Assembly: GCF_009671205.1 (NCBI RefSeq)
Contig: NZ_CP045309.1
Location: forward strand, 3,906,001-3,970,000
Source: Micromonospora terminaliae
GTDB lineage: Bacteria > Actinomycetota > Actinomycetes > Mycobacteriales > Micromonosporaceae
Reading direction: 5' to 3'
DNA length: 64,000 bases
The notes below the pieces were generated by a model. It saw only the letters and a program-made list of their open reading frames with translations, was not told the origin of the DNA and did no database searches. The stretch's first letter is position 1; the number at the start of each line of letters is the position of its first letter. The position numbers and the translations under genes were made by a program. This document shows, piece by piece, positions 2,274 through 9,184 of the stretch.

Positions 2274-3032
2274 TCAGGAGGCGAGCGGGAGGGCGCGGGA
2301 GTGCAGGAGGCGGGCGTCGTCCGTCACCACGGCGTGCCGCCAGGGCGCGGGCAGGCGGTCCAGCCAGCCGATGCCGGGCTCGCCCATGGCCACGGCGGCG
2401 GTGGCGTAGGCGTCGGCGACGCCGAGGTCGGGGCCGACCACGGTGACCGAGCGCAGGCCGGTGGCCGGGGTGCCCCGGCGGGGATCGACGACGTGGTGGC
2501 CGCGCTCGTAGACGCCGGAGGTCGCGACCGCCAGGTCGGTGCCGGTCAGGACCAGGCACGTGGCGGCCGGGTCCCAGGGGTGCCGGACGCCGATCCGCCA
2601 CGGGTCGCCGGTGGCCGCGTGGCCGCGTACCCGGACATCGCCACCGGCGTTCACGCAGTGGTTCGGGGCGCCGGCCGCGACCAGCCGGTCCGAGGCCACC
2701 TGCGCCGCCCAGCCCTTCACGTAGCCCGACGGGTCCAGCCGGCCCGTGGCGTACGCGTCGAAGTAGCCGTCGGTGCCGGCCCACAGGTCGGCGCAGCGGT
2801 CGAGGACGCTCCGCAGGTCGGCCGACGCCTCGGCCAGCCGCAGCTCGCCCCGGTCCAGGCGGCACACCTCGCTGTCCGTCCGGTAGGTGCTGAAGCGGGC
2901 GTCCACGTCGCGCAGCCAGGCGAACGTCTCCTCGGCCAGCTCGTGCAGGGTGGCGGCGGGCAGGTCGTCGGCCAGGTCCAGGCTGATCGCCGTACCCATG
3001 ATCTGCTCGACCCGGCGCAGGCCCGGCCTCAT
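2274..3032 (-). CDS. apbE: ApbE-family FAD:protein FMN transferase
   Basis: 252 aa. ApbE enzymes transfer FMN from FAD to a threonine of a target FMN-binding domain using a divalent metal. Visible signatures: an N-terminal VEQIMGTAISLDL strand, DPSGYVKGWA (the usual GG-x-AKG region), HCVNAGGDVRVRG, TSGVYERGHHVVDP and DAYATAAVAMG near the C-terminus. Many ApbE proteins are exported lipoproteins. This one has no signal peptide or lipobox, so it looks cytosolic. Its ATG overlaps the TGA of the upstream FMN-binding gene by 4 nt (ATGA), implying translational coupling. It is the last gene of the five-gene redox operon, and its presumed substrate is the protein encoded just before it. Confidence 0.9.
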   Translation of the reverse strand: MRPGLRRVEQIMGTAISLDLADDLPAATLHELAEETFAWLRDVDARFSTYRTDSEVCRLDRGELRLAEASADLRSVLDRCADLWAGTDGYFDAYATGRLDPSGYVKGWAAQVASDRLVAAGAPNHCVNAGGDVRVRGHAATGDPWRIGVRHPWDPAATCLVLTGTDLAVATSGVYERGHHVVDPRRGTPATGLRSVTVVGPDLGVADAYATAAVAMGEPGIGWLDRLPAPWRHAVVTDDARLLHSRALPLAS

Positions 3033-3625
3033 GCCTTGTCGAGGGCAGCCTGGAGCGACTGCTTGTAGGCCGTGCTGGTGTAGGTGGCCCCGGAGACGGT
3101 GTTCAGGTTGGCGCTCTGCTTGGCGACCACCTCGCCCGAGCTGCCGCTGTAGCGGGCCTGCACGTCGTCGCTGCGCAGCCCGGACTGCCCGTCCAGCGGC
3201 ATGCCGAGGCCGGTGGCGTCGACGATCCGGCTCCCGCTCAGCGTGATCCGCACCTGGAGCGAGCCGTACCGGTAGCTGACCACCGGCCCGGTGACCGTCC
3301 GGGTGGTGACCTTCGGCGCGCTCGTGGTGGTCCGCGGCGCGGCGGTCGTGGCCCTGGTGGTGACCCGGGTGGTGGCGCTGGTCCGGGTGCCGGGGGCGCG
3401 GCTCGCGCCGGCCTTGGCGCTCGGCTTCGCCGACGCGCCGGGCCGGGCGGAGGGGGTGACGCCGCCGGGGGCCGGCCCGGGGGCCGCCGAGCCGCCGGGG
3501 ACGACGGGTGCCTCGGCGACCGGCCGGTCCTGCGCGGCCTGGCTCGTGCCCGGGGCGCCCTTGAGCACCACCAGCGCGGTGGTGCCGGCGGCCAGGCCGG
3601 TGATCGCGAGGAGCGCGCGACGCAT
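3029..3625 (-). CDS. FMN-binding domain protein, membrane-anchored or secreted, probable ApbE substrate
   Basis: 198 aa from ATG 3625, chosen because it begins a clean signal or anchor segment (MRRALLAITGLAAGTTALVV). Residues about 30-110 are a Pro/Ala/Thr/Ser-rich linker, and about 115-198 are a compact FMN-binding domain. The C-terminal SGATYTS is the flavinylation motif; the threonine of SGAT is the residue to which ApbE attaches FMN in characterised relatives such as NqrC/RnfG. The layout suggests a tethered flavin carrier outside the membrane. It lies 13 bp after the ferric-reductase-like gene and overlaps apbE by 4 nt. Confidence 0.9.
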   Translation of the reverse strand: MRRALLAITGLAAGTTALVVLKGAPGTSQAAQDRPVAEAPVVPGGSAAPGPAPGGVTPSARPGASAKPSAKAGASRAPGTRTSATTRVTTRATTAAPRTTTSAPKVTTRTVTGPVVSYRYGSLQVRITLSGSRIVDATGLGMPLDGQSGLRSDDVQARYSGSSGEVVAKQSANLNTVSGATYTSTAYKQSLQAALDKA

Positions 3626-3638
3626 GGGCGGGGCCTCT

Positions 3639-5054
3639 CTACAGCTCGAAGGTGGCGAGGTGGATCTGCCGGCGCGGCACACCGGCCCGGCGCAGCGCCC
3701 GGACCGCCTCCTCGACCAGGCCGCCCGGGCCGCACAGGTAGACGTCGCGCCGGGTGAGGTCGGGCACCAGCCGGCGCAGCCCCTCCGGGCTCATCACCTG
3801 GCGGGGACCGGGGTCGTCGCGGGAGCCGACCACGTACCAGACCGAGGTGTGCCGGGCCTGGGCGAGCCAGTCCAGCTCGTTGTGCAGCAGCACGTCGGCC
3901 GGGGTACGGGCCCGGTAGATCAGGGCCGCGCCGGGCGGCAACTCCTCCAGCATGGCGCGCAGCGGGGCGATGCCGCTGCCGCCGGCGATCAGCAGGGCCC
4001 GCTCGCGGGTCCGGTGGGCCGCCGTGAAGGTGCCAGACGGCCCCTGCGCCCAGACCCGGGTGCCCGGGCGGAGATCCCGCAGCTCGGCGGTGTGCCCGCC
4101 GACGACCTTGACGGTGAGCCGCAGCCAGCGGCCGTTGCCCGCCGCCGAGAGCGAGAACGGGTGCGACTGCCACCAGCAGCCGGGGTTGAGGAAGCGCCAG
4201 CGGAAGTACTGGCCGCCGAGCAGGTCGATCTGGTTGAGCCGGTGCCCGGTCAGGTAGATCGAGATGGTGTCCGGGCTCTCCGCGACCACGTCGGCGACGC
4301 GCAGCCGGTGCCGCAGGTTGAAGCGCAGCGGGACGATCAGCCGGCCCCACACCAGCGCGGCCACCACCAGCAGGTACGCGGCGATCCAGCCGGTGCGCAC
4401 CGGGCCGGGCTCGTAGAGCTGGGCGCCGTTGCTGAACTGGTGCCCGTAGCCGAGCAGCAGGGCGAGGTAGCTGGTCAGGTGCAGGTGGTGCCAGAGCTCG
4501 TAGGGCAGCCGCCGGCGGACGCCCCGGACCGCGGTGAGGCCGACCGCCACCATGATCCCGGCGGCCACGAAGGCCGAGACCATGTCCTCGTAGTGGGTCA
4601 GGAGGGCGCCGACCTGGCCGAGGATCGAGTTCTTCTCCATCCGGGCGTAGCCGACCACCAGCAGCGCCAGGTGGGCGAGGACCGCCACCAGCAGAGTGGC
4701 GCCGACGTCCCGGTGCGCCCGCGAGATCCGCTCGCCGCCCAGCCGGCGCTCCAGCGCCCCGAGCCGGCTCATCATGAGCACCTGGACCAGCAGCAGGTAG
4801 CCGGCGACCAGGCCGGTGATCCGGCCGGCCGCGGTGAGCAGGCCGGTGGTGTCGGCCAGCGAGCCGGGCGGGGTGGCCAGCCACCAGGGCAGCACCGCGG
4901 CGACCAGGCCGAGCCAGAAGACAGCGCTCAGCGCCCGCCGCCCGCCCGGCCCCCGGCGCGGCACACCCGGGGGTACGGGGGCAGCCGGACGGCCGCCGTA
5001 CGGGGCGGAAGGCCCGGTACGGCGGCCGGTGGCGTAAGTGTCCTGATATGTCAC
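3639..5054 (-). CDS. Ferric-reductase-like transmembrane flavocytochrome with FAD/NAD(P)H oxidoreductase domain
   Basis: 471 aa from GTG 5054, which overlaps the stop of the DUF1501 gene (GTGA). Residues 1-40 are Pro/Gly-rich and cytosolic. About 42-245 hold six predicted membrane segments with histidines placed as heme ligands of the ferric reductase domain (RAHRDVGATL, LAHLALLV, ELWHHLHLTSY, GYGHQF). From about 255 follows a ferredoxin-NADP reductase module: GGQYFRWRF, HPFSLS (FAD), GGSGIAPLRAML (nucleotide), YLCGPGG and a C-terminal ATFEL. It should pass electrons from cytosolic NAD(P)H through FAD and hemes to the outside. The FMN-binding protein encoded 13 bp downstream is the natural acceptor. 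A much longer open frame extends upstream but is antisense-like noise. Confidence 0.88.
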   Translation of the reverse strand: MTYQDTYATGRRTGPSAPYGGRPAAPVPPGVPRRGPGGRRALSAVFWLGLVAAVLPWWLATPPGSLADTTGLLTAAGRITGLVAGYLLLVQVLMMSRLGALERRLGGERISRAHRDVGATLLVAVLAHLALLVVGYARMEKNSILGQVGALLTHYEDMVSAFVAAGIMVAVGLTAVRGVRRRLPYELWHHLHLTSYLALLLGYGHQFSNGAQLYEPGPVRTGWIAAYLLVVAALVWGRLIVPLRFNLRHRLRVADVVAESPDTISIYLTGHRLNQIDLLGGQYFRWRFLNPGCWWQSHPFSLSAAGNGRWLRLTVKVVGGHTAELRDLRPGTRVWAQGPSGTFTAAHRTRERALLIAGGSGIAPLRAMLEELPPGAALIYRARTPADVLLHNELDWLAQARHTSVWYVVGSRDDPGPRQVMSPEGLRRLVPDLTRRDVYLCGPGGLVEEAVRALRRAGVPRRQIHLATFEL

Positions 5055-6430
5055 GCGTACAGCTTCACGGGAGTGTATTTCTGCCGGGGGAAGACCTTGT
5101 CCACCTGCGCGGTCGTCAGTCCGAACCGGCCCTGCGCTACCGAACCGTAGACGTTGAACATGTTGTTGTACTCGGGTACGTCTCCGCTGTCGAGATCGTT
5201 CAACCCGTTCCAGGTGCCGAGGAGCGAGCCGGCGAGCTTGCGCCCGGACAGGATGGTGACCACCCCGCCGTGCCCGTGGTCGGTGCCGCCCTGGTTCGAG
5301 GCGACCCGCCGGCCGAACTCGCTGGACACCATGATCGTCACGTCGGCGGCCCGGTCGCCGAGGTCGGTGAAGAACGCCGCCATGGCGTTCGCCAGCTCGT
5401 TGAGCCGGCGCCAGAGCTGGCCGCCCTCGCGGGTGCCCTGGTTCTCGTGGGTGTCGTAGCCGCCCATGCCGACCGTCGCCACCCGCACGTTGGCCCCGCC
5501 CTTGATGAGTTGGGCGAGCTGCTGGAAGGCGTACCCGACGCCCTCGTACTTCACCCCGGCGGCGGCCGCGTACGGCTTCGCGGCCAGCTTCTGCGCGGTG
5601 GCCAGCGCGCCCATGCCCTCGATGACCGCCTCCTCCACCGGGTGGTTGATCCCGGTGAAGAGGCCGCGGATGGCCTTCTCGGTCGCGGCGCGGAACCGGT
5701 CGTCGCCGTTGAGCCGCAGCTCCCCCACGCTGTTGAGGGAGATCGCGCCGTTCACGCCGACCAGCGAGCGGGGCAGCGTGCTGCCGATGCCGACGCTGCG
5801 GAACGCCGTGCCCTTGCCGAGGGTGTCGACCAGGCTGTCCAGCCAGCCCCGGCCACCGGTCTCGCCGGGCAGGCCGCCCAGGTTGCAGGCGTCGGCGGCC
5901 TGGAAGTGGCTGCGGGACAGCCGCGGGTCGGAGACGGCCGGCACGAAGCCGAGCTGGCCGGCCGTGAGCCACTTCTCCAGCGGAGCGAACGCGCTGGTCA
6001 GCTTGAAGCCGCGGCCGAGGGCCAGCGAGTCGTTGCCGAGCAGCAGGTCGGGGCGGGTCCGGCTGAGCACCGGGTCGTCGGCCGGGGCGACCAGGCTCAG
6101 CCCGTCCAGCCCGCCGTAGAGGAAGACGTGGATCAGCGTGCCGGTCTTCGTCGCCGCGAACGACGCCGAGGTGGTGACGAACTGGGCGGTGGCCAGGGCG
6201 GTCGCCGTGGCCGCGGCACCGGCCACGAAGGTACGCCGGGTGACGCCCCGGCCGTCCTGCTGGGCCTCCTCCAGCTCCTCCAGCCGGCGGTACCGGTCCG
6301 CCTCGGCGGCGTTCTCCGCCGCGACGATGTCGGCCTCCGCGCGCAGCAGCGCCTCGGCCGGGTTGTCGGCCAGCCGCCGCAGGTCGGGGCATTCGGGGTG
6401 CAGGGGGTACGGGTTCACGGTCATCTCCAT
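5051..6430 (-). CDS. DUF1501 family protein with Tat-type signal
   Basis: 459 aa from ATG 6430, preferred because GGTGAGG sits 6 nt upstream; GTG 6442, overlapping the DUF1800 stop, is the alternative. Residues about 20-60 are a charged helical N-region, then a twin-arginine motif (VTRRTFVAGAAATATALA) near 67, so export through Tat is likely. The mature part has the DUF1501 sulfatase-like features: HVFLYGGLDGLSLVAPADD, SRSHFQAAD, GYDTHENQG, SSEFGRRVASN and GTDHGHGG, with several Asp/His that could bind metal. Function is unknown; the family is almost always next to DUF1800. It lies between DUF1800 and the flavocytochrome with overlaps on both sides. Confidence 0.9.
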   Translation of the reverse strand: MEMTVNPYPLHPECPDLRRLADNPAEALLRAEADIVAAENAAEADRYRRLEELEEAQQDGRGVTRRTFVAGAAATATALATAQFVTTSASFAATKTGTLIHVFLYGGLDGLSLVAPADDPVLSRTRPDLLLGNDSLALGRGFKLTSAFAPLEKWLTAGQLGFVPAVSDPRLSRSHFQAADACNLGGLPGETGGRGWLDSLVDTLGKGTAFRSVGIGSTLPRSLVGVNGAISLNSVGELRLNGDDRFRAATEKAIRGLFTGINHPVEEAVIEGMGALATAQKLAAKPYAAAAGVKYEGVGYAFQQLAQLIKGGANVRVATVGMGGYDTHENQGTREGGQLWRRLNELANAMAAFFTDLGDRAADVTIMVSSEFGRRVASNQGGTDHGHGGVVTILSGRKLAGSLLGTWNGLNDLDSGDVPEYNNMFNVYGSVAQGRFGLTTAQVDKVFPRQKYTPVKLYA

Positions 6431-6438
6431 CGAATGCC

Positions 6439-8475
6439 TCACCGGAGGTGGTGCTGGGGGGACGCGAGGATCGTCCGCGCGACCGCGGCGATGGCCCCGT
6501 TGAAGGTGGCGTCGACCTTGGCGCCGGCCGACACCCCGGCGACGCCGAGCACGAGGGCCTTCTCCTTGGCGCTCAGCTTCTGGTGCACGAGCCGCTGGGC
6601 CAGCGCGTCCACGTACGCCCCGGCGGTCGCCGGCGGCTTCGCCACCAGCTTCTCCGGACGGAGGTAGGTGAACTGCTTGCGGTAACCGGCCACCAGGTCG
6701 CCGGCCTCGTTCCAGCCGTCGACCATGGTGCCGGCCGAGGTCCAGGCCACGTAGACGTCGGCGTAGCCGTCCGGGGTGGGCTTGCCCATCGGGTACTGGC
6801 CCAGCTCACGCAGCTTGTCCTGGATCTGCCGCAGCCCCTGGGCGAACGGGGTGCGCCGCTTGTCGCCCTCGAATCCCGCGGACGCCTCCGGGCCCACGCC
6901 GAGGGAGCGGTAGGTGGCGACCAGGTACTCCATGGGGCGGCGGACCTTCTGGCCGACCGAGGCCCAGAACTCCGAGGAGCTGAACAGCGTGGCCAGCACC
7001 GGCCGGATCTGGCCCTTGTTCGTCGTGTACGACTTGGCCAGCCGGTCCACGAGCGACTTCGGCGGGGTGTCGGAGACGAACCGGGTGGCGAGGCTGCTCG
7101 CCACGTACCGCGCGGTCGACGGGTGCAGCGCGATGTAGGTGATGTACTGGTCGATCACCTTGTCGGCGGCCTTCGGGTCGGCCGAGTTGTTGGCGTGGCT
7201 GAACCCGAGGATCTTCACCTTGCCGACGTAGTGCCGCTCCGGGAAGAACCGGTACTTCCCGTCGGCCACACCCCGCCCGGTCTGCAGCATGGCGGCCTGG
7301 CGGACGTCCTTCTCGGTGTAGCCGCCGTCCACCCCGACCGAGTAGAGCTCCAGGTTCTCCCGGGCCAGGTTCTCGTTGACCGCGTCCTTGCGGGAGTCGG
7401 TCTGGTTCAGGTAGATGAGCAGGGCCGGGTGCTTGTTGGCGGCCACCAGCATGTCCGGGTAGCTGCCCAGCGCGTGCTTGCGGATGACGTCCTGGTCGAA
7501 CGAGTTCCGGTAGATCTCGCCGCCGTCGAAGTCGGCCGCCACGTGCAGGAAGTCGTTCCAGAAGTCGACCATCACCTCGAAGAGCTGGCGGTCCGACCAG
7601 ATCTGCCGGGCGATGGTGGCGTCCACGGTCTCCCGCTCCGGCTGGGCGCCCCGCTCGTTGAGCTGGTCCCGCTGGTCGCGCAGCTGGGTGGGGCTCAGCT
7701 TGAGGGTGGGCAGCTCGGCCAGCTTCAGCTCGGCCTTCGTCGGGGCGATCTTCTCCGGCTGGAGCTGCTGGCGCAGCCAGTCGTCGATGCCGAGCCGCTT
7801 GATGTCGGCGAGCACCTTCGGCGTCGGCCCGAAGGTGGTCCGGCTGGCGAGGTGGCGGATCGGGTCCTTGGCGAGCACCGTCTTGACGGTCACCTGGGTG
7901 GCCGCCGCGGCCGCCGCCGGGCCGGCGAAGAGCCGGCCACCGGCCGGGGCGTTGCGCTTGAGCGCCAGACCCGCACGGGAGCCCATGTAGCTCTCGTTCT
8001 GCTCGGTGTAGGTGCGCACCGTGCTGGGCTGCTGGCCGCTCGGGCGGGCCGCGGTGCCGTCGGTGACGACCGTGCCGGTCGCGTCGCCGGCCGCGGGGTC
8101 GTCGGAGAAGAGGCCCCGGATCTGCGGGGACAGGCCCAGGGCGGCACCACCGGCGACCACCGCGGCGCCGCCGAGCGCCACGAGGGCCCGGCGCCGGCCG
8201 CGGCGCGGCTCGCCGTCGTGGTCGTCGTCGTCCAGGTTGGGCAGTCCGGGGCCGGGCGGCGGGGCGTACCCGCCGGACGGCTGGGGGTAGCCGCCGGCGA
8301 AGCCGTCGGGCCCGACCCACTGCGGGCCGGAGGCCGGAGGCGCCGGGGCGGCGTAGCCGCCGGGACCGGTGTACGGCATGGCGTTGTCGCGGTACCCGTC
8401 CGGATGGGGGTGCTGGAATCCGTCCCAGCCGCGGTCGTCCCGGGGTCGACGCGGTGGCACGTTCAGGTCGGCCAT
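6439..8475 (-). CDS. DUF1800 family protein, membrane-anchored
   Basis: 678 aa. Residues 1-95 are a Gly/Pro/Tyr-rich cytosolic tail ending in an acidic then Arg-rich stretch. A single membrane segment (ALVALGGAAVVAGGAALGL, about 97-118) follows, and the rest is the DUF1800 domain from about 200 (RHLASRTTFGPT, SDRQLFEVMVDFWNDFLH, ENLARENLELYSVGVDGGYTEKDV, FSHANNSADPKAAD, MEYLVATYRSLG). This is the first gene of the five-gene operon; its stop overlaps the alternative DUF1501 start (GTGA). DUF1800/DUF1501 pairs are widespread and uncharacterised. Here the anchor implies the domain is outside the membrane, next to the flavin electron carrier. Confidence 0.9.
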   Translation of the reverse strand: MADLNVPPRRPRDDRGWDGFQHPHPDGYRDNAMPYTGPGGYAAPAPPASGPQWVGPDGFAGGYPQPSGGYAPPPGPGLPNLDDDDHDGEPRRGRRRALVALGGAAVVAGGAALGLSPQIRGLFSDDPAAGDATGTVVTDGTAARPSGQQPSTVRTYTEQNESYMGSRAGLALKRNAPAGGRLFAGPAAAAAATQVTVKTVLAKDPIRHLASRTTFGPTPKVLADIKRLGIDDWLRQQLQPEKIAPTKAELKLAELPTLKLSPTQLRDQRDQLNERGAQPERETVDATIARQIWSDRQLFEVMVDFWNDFLHVAADFDGGEIYRNSFDQDVIRKHALGSYPDMLVAANKHPALLIYLNQTDSRKDAVNENLARENLELYSVGVDGGYTEKDVRQAAMLQTGRGVADGKYRFFPERHYVGKVKILGFSHANNSADPKAADKVIDQYITYIALHPSTARYVASSLATRFVSDTPPKSLVDRLAKSYTTNKGQIRPVLATLFSSSEFWASVGQKVRRPMEYLVATYRSLGVGPEASAGFEGDKRRTPFAQGLRQIQDKLRELGQYPMGKPTPDGYADVYVAWTSAGTMVDGWNEAGDLVAGYRKQFTYLRPEKLVAKPPATAGAYVDALAQRLVHQKLSAKEKALVLGVAGVSAGAKVDATFNGAIAAVARTILASPQHHLR

Positions 8476-8926
8476 GTAGCTGTCCCGTTTTCTTCGAGCG
8501 CCGGCACGCCTGCCACCCAGGGGGTGGGCGGAGGGGCGGCGACGGTTGCCGGAGGAGTTGCTACGGGAAAGTAGCCACGCGCTCCCGGGCGCTCAAGGCA
8601 CGCCGGCGGCACCCCTGAGGGCACTTAAGACGGTGCTCAGGCCCGCGGCCCGGCGGGCGGCGCGGGCAGCCCGGACCGGCGGCCCCCGGAGCTGGGCCGA
8701 CCCGGGCGGTCCCCGCCCCCGCGTAACGTTTTGGCCGGTCGCGGCGCTATTCGCGGCGTTCAACCCCTCAGGGAAACTTAAGGCACGGATAAGCCCGTGC
8801 TGAGGTCACCGACCGCCGCGTCCGAGCCTGTCCCACTCGCGGAAACCAGCAGCAGCGGGGCGCGTGACCCGCCCCCGATCCGGGTATGCCGCCGAACCGC
8901 TGAAGCCGTGAGGGGAAGGCACCGCC
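8476..8926. other. 451-bp divergent intergenic region with two related palindromic segments
   Basis: The region separates the DUF1800 operon (left, minus) from DUF3040 (right, plus). No coding potential is convincing. Two segments look related: around 8612-8645 (CCCTGAGGGCACTTAAG then GTGCTCAG) and around 8765-8803 (CCCTCAGGGAAACTTAAG then GCACGG/CCGTGC). Each contains CTTAAG and an inverted repeat. They may be matched promoter or operator regions for the two divergent units. Confidence 0.35.
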
Positions 8927-9184
8927 ATGCTCAGCAAAGAGGATCAGCGCAGGTTCGAACAGATCACCCGCCAGCTGCGGGAAAGTGACCCGCAGTTCTT
9001 CGCCCGGCTCGACCACCGGGCCCGGGGCCGCCGAGGCCGGTACCTGATGCTGCTGACGATCGTGCTGTGGGCCTCGCTGCCGGCGATGACCGTACTTGCC
9101 GGGCGAATGGCCGGCGCGATCTGCGCCGTGGTGCTGATCGCCAATGCCGGCCTCATGTGGCGGTTCCGCCGGCGCTGGCTATGA
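8927..9184 (+). CDS. DUF3040 family small membrane protein
   Basis: 85 aa. The ATG at 8927 follows GAGGGGAAGG. An N-terminal basic amphipathic helix (MLSKEDQRRFEQITRQL, then DPQFFARLDH) is followed by two hydrophobic segments (YLMLLTIVLWASLPAMTVLA and MAGAICAVVLIANAGLMW) and a basic tail. This matches the short DUF3040 inner-membrane proteins common in actinomycetes, whose function is unknown. It converges on the SWIM-domain gene 12 bp away. Confidence 0.88.
   Translation: MLSKEDQRRFEQITRQLRESDPQFFARLDHRARGRRGRYLMLLTIVLWASLPAMTVLAGRMAGAICAVVLIANAGLMWRFRRRWL

What the first reader, a model, noticed from the sequence alone, without database searches (positions are those of the whole stretch)
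2274..8475. Five-gene coupled operon joining DUF1800/DUF1501 to an ApbE-flavinylated electron export chain
Seen: DUF1800, DUF1501, a ferric-reductase-like flavocytochrome, an FMN-binding protein with SGATYTS, and ApbE, with 4-nt overlaps at three junctions (6439/6442 if the upstream DUF1501 start is used, 5051/5054, 3029/3032) and a 13-bp gap at the fourth. Known: ApbE puts FMN on SGAT threonines, and ferric-reductase domains carry electrons across membranes. Inference: NAD(P)H > FAD/heme > covalent FMN > an exported DUF1501/DUF1800 pair, which would then be redox partners or terminal enzymes. That gives a testable role for two widespread families of unknown function.
Basis: partly seen in the sequence, partly recalled or inferred. 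Interest (0 to 1): 0.75.

Follow-up and report, generated by a model that had tools for sequence, protein, structure and literature searches.

The report
Electron-export genes fused to DUF1800/DUF1501 operon
In soil bacteria of the Micromonospora family, genes that push electrons out of the cell sit in one conserved, tightly packed operon with two exported proteins of unknown function, one of which looks like a phosphatase-type enzyme rather than an electron carrier.

Summary
Five genes lie on the minus strand at 2274-8475 with three 4-nt overlaps and one 13-bp gap. The order is conserved: of 79 named loci, 57 carry all five in the same order, 7 are incomplete (6 cut by contig ends) and 15 lack the redox genes. 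Of 25 Micromonospora genomes, 18 have the DUF1800 ortholog and the reductase side by side and 7 lack both, most simply by three separate losses. Reductase, FMN protein and ApbE are a known module, the MsrQ-like flavinylation cluster of Meheust 2021; DUF1800-DUF1501 is a known gene pair. Their union is what is new; it was seen in one family only. The redox role proposed for the pair is not supported: DUF1501 models as an alkaline-phosphatase-superfamily fold with invariant Asp/Ser/His residues, and neither protein shows a recognisable redox motif. Two relatives keep only the triad at this site, and others only the pair beside one of the same flanks, so the link looks facultative. Best reading: an exported hydrolase/transferase pair served by, or co-expressed with, a flavin-based electron exporter.

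The parts
6439..8475 (-). DUF1800 protein, 678 aa; Pro/Gly-rich N-terminus, R94-R95 followed by a hydrophobic segment 97-116, then an exported helical domain (about 180-640)
   Evidence: PF08811 389 bits; hydrophobic segment; AF2 mean pLDDT 67, mostly 70-97 over residues 180-560, no PDB fold match
5051..6442 (-). DUF1501 protein, 463 aa; twin-arginine motif VTRRTF at 67-72; alkaline-phosphatase-superfamily fold from about residue 95 (predicted)
3639..5054 (-). MsrQ/ferric-reductase-like flavocytochrome with FAD and NAD(P)H domains, 471 aa
   Evidence: PF01794, PF08022, PF00175; four heme-type His invariant in 40 of 40 rows
3029..3625 (-). FMN_bind protein: N-terminal MRRALLAITG anchor or signal, Thr/Ser/Pro-rich stalk, C-terminal FMN domain with SGATYTS
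   Evidence: PF04205 26.7 bits; SGAT at residue 178; RR-hydrophobic start seen in 20 of 24 five-gene-type rows, not extracted in the other 4
2274..3032 (-). ApbE flavin transferase, 252 aa, without a recognisable signal peptide
   Evidence: PF02424 149 bits; AGGD and H..[DN]P kept in 38 of 38 rows, no TM-like segment in the window's copy; catalytic domain begins near the start
8476..8926 (-). intergenic region with the presumed operon promoter; two repeats beginning CTTAAGT (near 8782 and 8629) and a CCTTGAG copy (near 8597)
   Evidence: conserved columns in a 14-sequence alignment; positions; a regulatory role is inference

Best explanation
A conserved, translationally coupled five-gene operon of Micromonosporaceae made by joining two older modules. 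Module 1 (domains and motifs shown by sequence): an MsrQ-like flavinylated electron exporter. NAD(P)H reduces FAD in the cytosolic domain, two hemes b carry electrons across the membrane, and a membrane-anchored FMN domain, flavinylated by ApbE at SGAT, receives them outside (pathway inferred from established knowledge of these families). Module 2: an exported DUF1800-DUF1501 pair, in which DUF1501 is a metal-dependent alkaline-phosphatase-superfamily enzyme (phospho- or sulfoester hydrolase or transferase; fold predicted, activity inferred) and DUF1800 its helical partner (inferred from constant pairing). Most likely the pair is not an electron carrier: it works on an envelope or extracellular substrate, and the exporter supplies reducing power for the same process, for example by keeping a metal or the substrate reduced. 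The functional coupling is inferred from order, overlap and joint loss, and appears facultative.
Against: At the same site, with both flanks seen, two relatives (L111, L112) keep the triad without the pair; three (L089, L090, L109) keep the pair without the triad beside the same Prim-Pol/HTH flank, the other flank not found; one locus named Micromonospora (L218) has DUF1501 directly beside Prim-Pol/HTH without the triad. 14 further fetched triads have no DUF pair. 73 of 80 fetched DUF1800 loci show none of the redox genes. Whole-block loss can come from one deletion of contiguous genes and does not prove joint function. Foldseek TM-scores are low (0.26-0.33 over the query in the first ten rows, rmsd 12.7-19.5), and the DUF1501 model has mean pLDDT 78. 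One origin of the joining is not shown. No substrate, transcript or protein data.
Confidence: 0.5

Rival explanations
1. Shared promoter only: the triad came to lie behind the DUF pair and is co-expressed with it (for instance under one envelope-stress or nutrient signal), but the two modules act on unrelated substrates.
For: Each module exists alone, the triad also at this very site and the pair beside one of the same flanks; among 16 standalone triads no neighbour within 3.5 kb recurred beyond close relatives; the pair's active-site columns do not change when the triad is present.
Against: Two overlaps available in 15 of 15 Micromonospora loci; in 25 genus genomes DUF1800 ortholog and reductase were both present or both absent; L113 has all five genes with none of the usual flanking genes.
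Confidence: 0.33
2. One reading: DUF1501/DUF1800 directly accept electrons from the FMN domain and are terminal redox enzymes.
For: Genomic coupling; a multicopper oxidase gene beside DUF1800 in one sister locus, L061.
Against: Predicted DUF1501 fold is of hydrolase/transferase type; no Cys in DUF1800, no CXXCH or SGAT in either; 73 of 80 fetched DUF1800 loci show no redox triad.
Confidence: 0.1
3. The pair serves the exporter: the NPP-like DUF1501 processes flavin nucleotides (FAD to FMN) or an envelope component needed to place the FMN protein.
For: The best VIA matches are nucleotide pyrophosphatase/phosphodiesterases; ApbE takes its FMN from FAD (recalled).
Against: 73 of 80 fetched DUF1800 loci have no ApbE or FMN protein nearby, 16 fetched triads have no pair, and ApbE here seems cytosolic, so it would not need extracellular FAD processing.
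Confidence: 0.07

Closest known systems
MsrQ-like flavinylation gene clusters (Meheust et al. 2021, eLife, PMC8238504; abstract and passages seen)
   Same: [quoted passage not shown] described there as broadly conserved in Actinobacteria, with NAD(P)H as the likely donor for at least a subset
   Different: The main text does not mention DUF1800 or DUF1501; the partner it names is the VIT1 iron transporter (153 clusters); here the cluster is translationally joined to DUF1800-DUF1501
DUF1800-DUF1501 gene pair beside bacterial chitin synthases (PMC5122149; passages seen)
   Same: Co-oriented DUF1800 and DUF1501 genes, DUF1501 with a twin-arginine motif
   Different: There linked to chitin synthase and a sugar epimerase; no redox genes of this kind in the passages seen
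Alkaline-phosphatase superfamily (NPP enzymes, LtaS/LtaP, sulfatases, BcsG)
   Same: Predicted fold of DUF1501 and an invariant Asp/Ser/His set
   Different: 8-14% identity in the listed matches; the metal-ligand correspondence was not established; activity unknown

Membership tests
MsrQ-like flavinylation cluster | PF01794 membrane protein within five genes of apbE/FMN_bind | tested here: met
   PF01794 55.4 bits, genes adjacent
MsrQ-like flavinylation cluster | two heme-binding sites (paired His) | tested here: met
   H114/H128 and H192/H205 in 40 of 40 rows; heme itself not tested
MsrQ-like flavinylation cluster | FMN_bind domain with [S/T]GA[S/T] acceptor | tested here: met
   PF04205 26.7 bits, SGATYT; SGAT in 22 of 24 five-gene-type rows
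MsrQ-like flavinylation cluster | at least one of apbE/FMN_bind predicted exported | tested here: inconclusive
   FMN protein has a hydrophobic N-terminal segment 3-23; no signal-peptide predictor was run; ApbE shows none
MsrQ-like flavinylation cluster | covalent FMN on the protein | not testable with these tools
   needs in-gel fluorescence or mass spectrometry
DUF1501 as alkaline-phosphatase superfamily | common fold | tested here: met
   [not shown]
DUF1501 as alkaline-phosphatase superfamily | Asp/His metal ligands and Ser/Thr nucleophile | tested here: inconclusive
   D113, S178, D330, H332, H389 in 84 of 84 rows, not mapped residue by residue onto a solved site
DUF1501 as alkaline-phosphatase superfamily | phospho- or sulfoester activity | not testable with these tools
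   needs enzyme assay
   no CXXCH, no SGAT, 0 Cys in DUF1800, Cys 18 and 186 in DUF1501; a non-Cys metal site is not excluded

The most novel reading that the evidence does not exclude
A flavinylation-based electron exporter drives or controls an alkaline-phosphatase-fold enzyme pair outside the cell, so that phospho/sulfo-transfer or ester cleavage on an envelope or iron-phosphate-type substrate depends on exported electrons; I know of no such reductively powered system, and it would give one clade of DUF1800/DUF1501 a testable biochemical role.
Probability: 0.22. Interest if true: 0.78.

Novelty: new variant of a known kind. Interest (0 to 1): 0.52.

Why it matters
DUF1800 and DUF1501 are widespread and little studied: 4 and 10 papers hold the names in the searched library. 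Here one clade of them is locked into an operon with a readable redox module, and nature has made the controls: at this site relatives carry both modules, the triad alone or neither, and others carry the pair alone beside one of the same flanks. That makes a role for the pair, and an output for an actinobacterial electron exporter, directly testable by deletion and complementation in soil Micromonospora.

Full report
What is there. The window lies in a 6.74-Mb genome. That its genus is Micromonospora is inferred: a genome scored as same genus (G009) has a contig of the same length, 59,239 bases, as the named record Micromonospora sp. AMSO31t. Five minus-strand genes fill 2274-8475 as described: DUF1800, DUF1501, a ferric-reductase-like flavocytochrome, an FMN-binding protein with SGATYTS and ApbE, with GTGA, GTGA and ATGA overlaps and one 13-bp gap.

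The redox triad. The reductase has the ferric-reductase, FAD and NAD domains. Its four heme-type histidines (H-x13-H and H-x12-H) are invariant in 40 of 40 rows, window included. The FMN protein has an N-terminal MRR-hydrophobic segment, a Thr/Ser/Pro-rich stalk and a C-terminal FMN domain. SGAT is kept in 22 of 24 five-gene-type rows (L100 and L114, which lack a found ApbE, are counted in); L146 and L147 read SQAT. The window's ApbE keeps the family motifs and shows no hydrophobic segment; in the other triads the catalytic domain also begins near the starts closest to the FMN stop, so ApbE seems cytosolic (no signal-peptide predictor was run, and other starts are possible). If so, flavinylation would precede export, which fits a twin-arginine route for the FMN protein; this is inference. 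Cytosolic ApbEs are known in other bacteria (ApbE review PMC12052999, passages seen). This triad is the MsrQ-like system of Meheust et al. 2021 (PMC8238504, abstract and passages seen).

Distribution. From three DUF1800 searches (searches listed matches each, a capped list) I fetched 80 loci: 10, 30 and 40 of them. DUF1501 lies beside DUF1800 in 79 of 80; the other (L070) is cut by a contig end. Reductase, FMN and ApbE all lie beside the pair in 6 of 80; L100 has a broken reductase and the FMN gene without ApbE; 73 show none of the three. All seven positives are among the 44 loci of the same family, none among the 36 from outside it. A scan of named genomes with two peptide patterns, which favours close relatives, gave 79 distinct loci: 57 have the five genes in one order (54 Micromonospora, 3 Asanoa). 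Seven are incomplete: L171, L160, L179, L181, L219 and L225 stop within 1.8 kb of DUF1501, while L211 has 5.7 kb left but no ApbE found. Fifteen lack the redox genes: Dactylosporangium 7, Phytohabitans 3, one Micromonospora (L218, where DUF1800 is cut off by the contig end), Verrucomicrobia 3, Planctomycetota 1.

Two modules, one site. Of 121 family genomes 98 have a reductase match at E<=1e-10. I tabulated 32 of them, those with the closest copies: 21 have the copy linked to DUF1800 by coordinates (59-100% identity); 11 do not, among them G059 and G047 at 71%; a second copy in G120 at 59% is also unlinked. The other 66, with best matches of 58% or less, were not tabulated. Sixteen fetched triads stand without the pair, among them a second triad of the own genome, L126. 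Gene neighbours show one chromosomal site, between SNF2/SWIM-type genes and a Prim-Pol/HTH pair, in several states: five genes (both flanks seen in 42 of the 57 named loci), triad alone in L111 and L112 (both flanks seen), and pair alone beside Prim-Pol/HTH in L089, L090 and L109, where the other flank was not found. G047, the genome of L112, has no DUF1800 at all. In the genus, 18 of 25 genomes have DUF1800 ortholog and reductase adjacent and 7 lack both; one of the 7, G001, keeps a divergent DUF1800 copy elsewhere. The 13 positives fetched all have five genes. Five of the seven negatives gave both flanks, with the block missing; L136 keeps DUF1800 fragments; the other two contigs end too early. 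The tree of flanking genes needs three changes to block absence, most simply losses (33 rows, one genome twice, SH-aLRT support only). The reductase tree needs three changes, which fits one joining and two later losses of the pair but can be read otherwise.

Reading. Within the genus sample the block behaves as one unit; across the family it is separable. This argues for a facultative link: the exporter and the exported enzyme pair share expression and probably a purpose, but neither needs the other everywhere. It speaks against the pair being obligate terminal redox enzymes. The likely job of the pair is ester cleavage or transfer at the envelope; how electrons help is unknown. Confidence in the anatomy is high, in functional coupling moderate, in any named substrate low.

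Novelty. Both halves are known. I found no description of their union in the paper listings, but the raw supplement of Meheust 2021 could not be read. I rate it a new variant of the MsrQ-like flavinylation cluster.

Noticed in passing
window 8927-9184 (+): Divergent small membrane gene of the DUF3040 family (PF11239, 56 bits); a similar gene lies at the triad-only site in L111, so it seems to belong to the site rather than to the DUF pair.
   Followed up: partly
window 8597-8782 (-): Repeats CTTAAGTTTCCCTGAGGGG and CTTAAGTGCCCTCAGGGG upstream of DUF1800, with conserved cores in 14 sequences; no sign of a regulon.
   Followed up: partly
G000:C1:3725699-3726937 (L126): Second reductase-FMN-ApbE triad in the own genome, 43% identical reductase, without DUF1800/DUF1501.
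   Followed up: partly
L146, L147 (G008, G012): The FMN protein reads SQAT instead of SGAT while all five genes are present; its dN/dS against the window (L147) is 0.96; flavinylation may be altered or lost there.
   Followed up: no
L061:10374-12314 (-): Multicopper oxidase gene directly upstream of a sister DUF1800-DUF1501 pair that lacks the triad.
   Followed up: no
L089:6042-7286, L109:5473-6879, L080:11024-12376: Glutamate-cysteine ligase family 2 (GCS2) genes near DUF1800-DUF1501 pairs in two separate clades; in L080 a pyridine-nucleotide disulfide oxidoreductase follows.
   Followed up: no
L136:8295-8834 (G013): Fragments of DUF1800 left in a site that has lost the other four genes.
   Followed up: partly
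L100 (G041): DUF1800 and reductase lie in several frames and ApbE is not found: decayed operon or sequencing errors.
   Followed up: no
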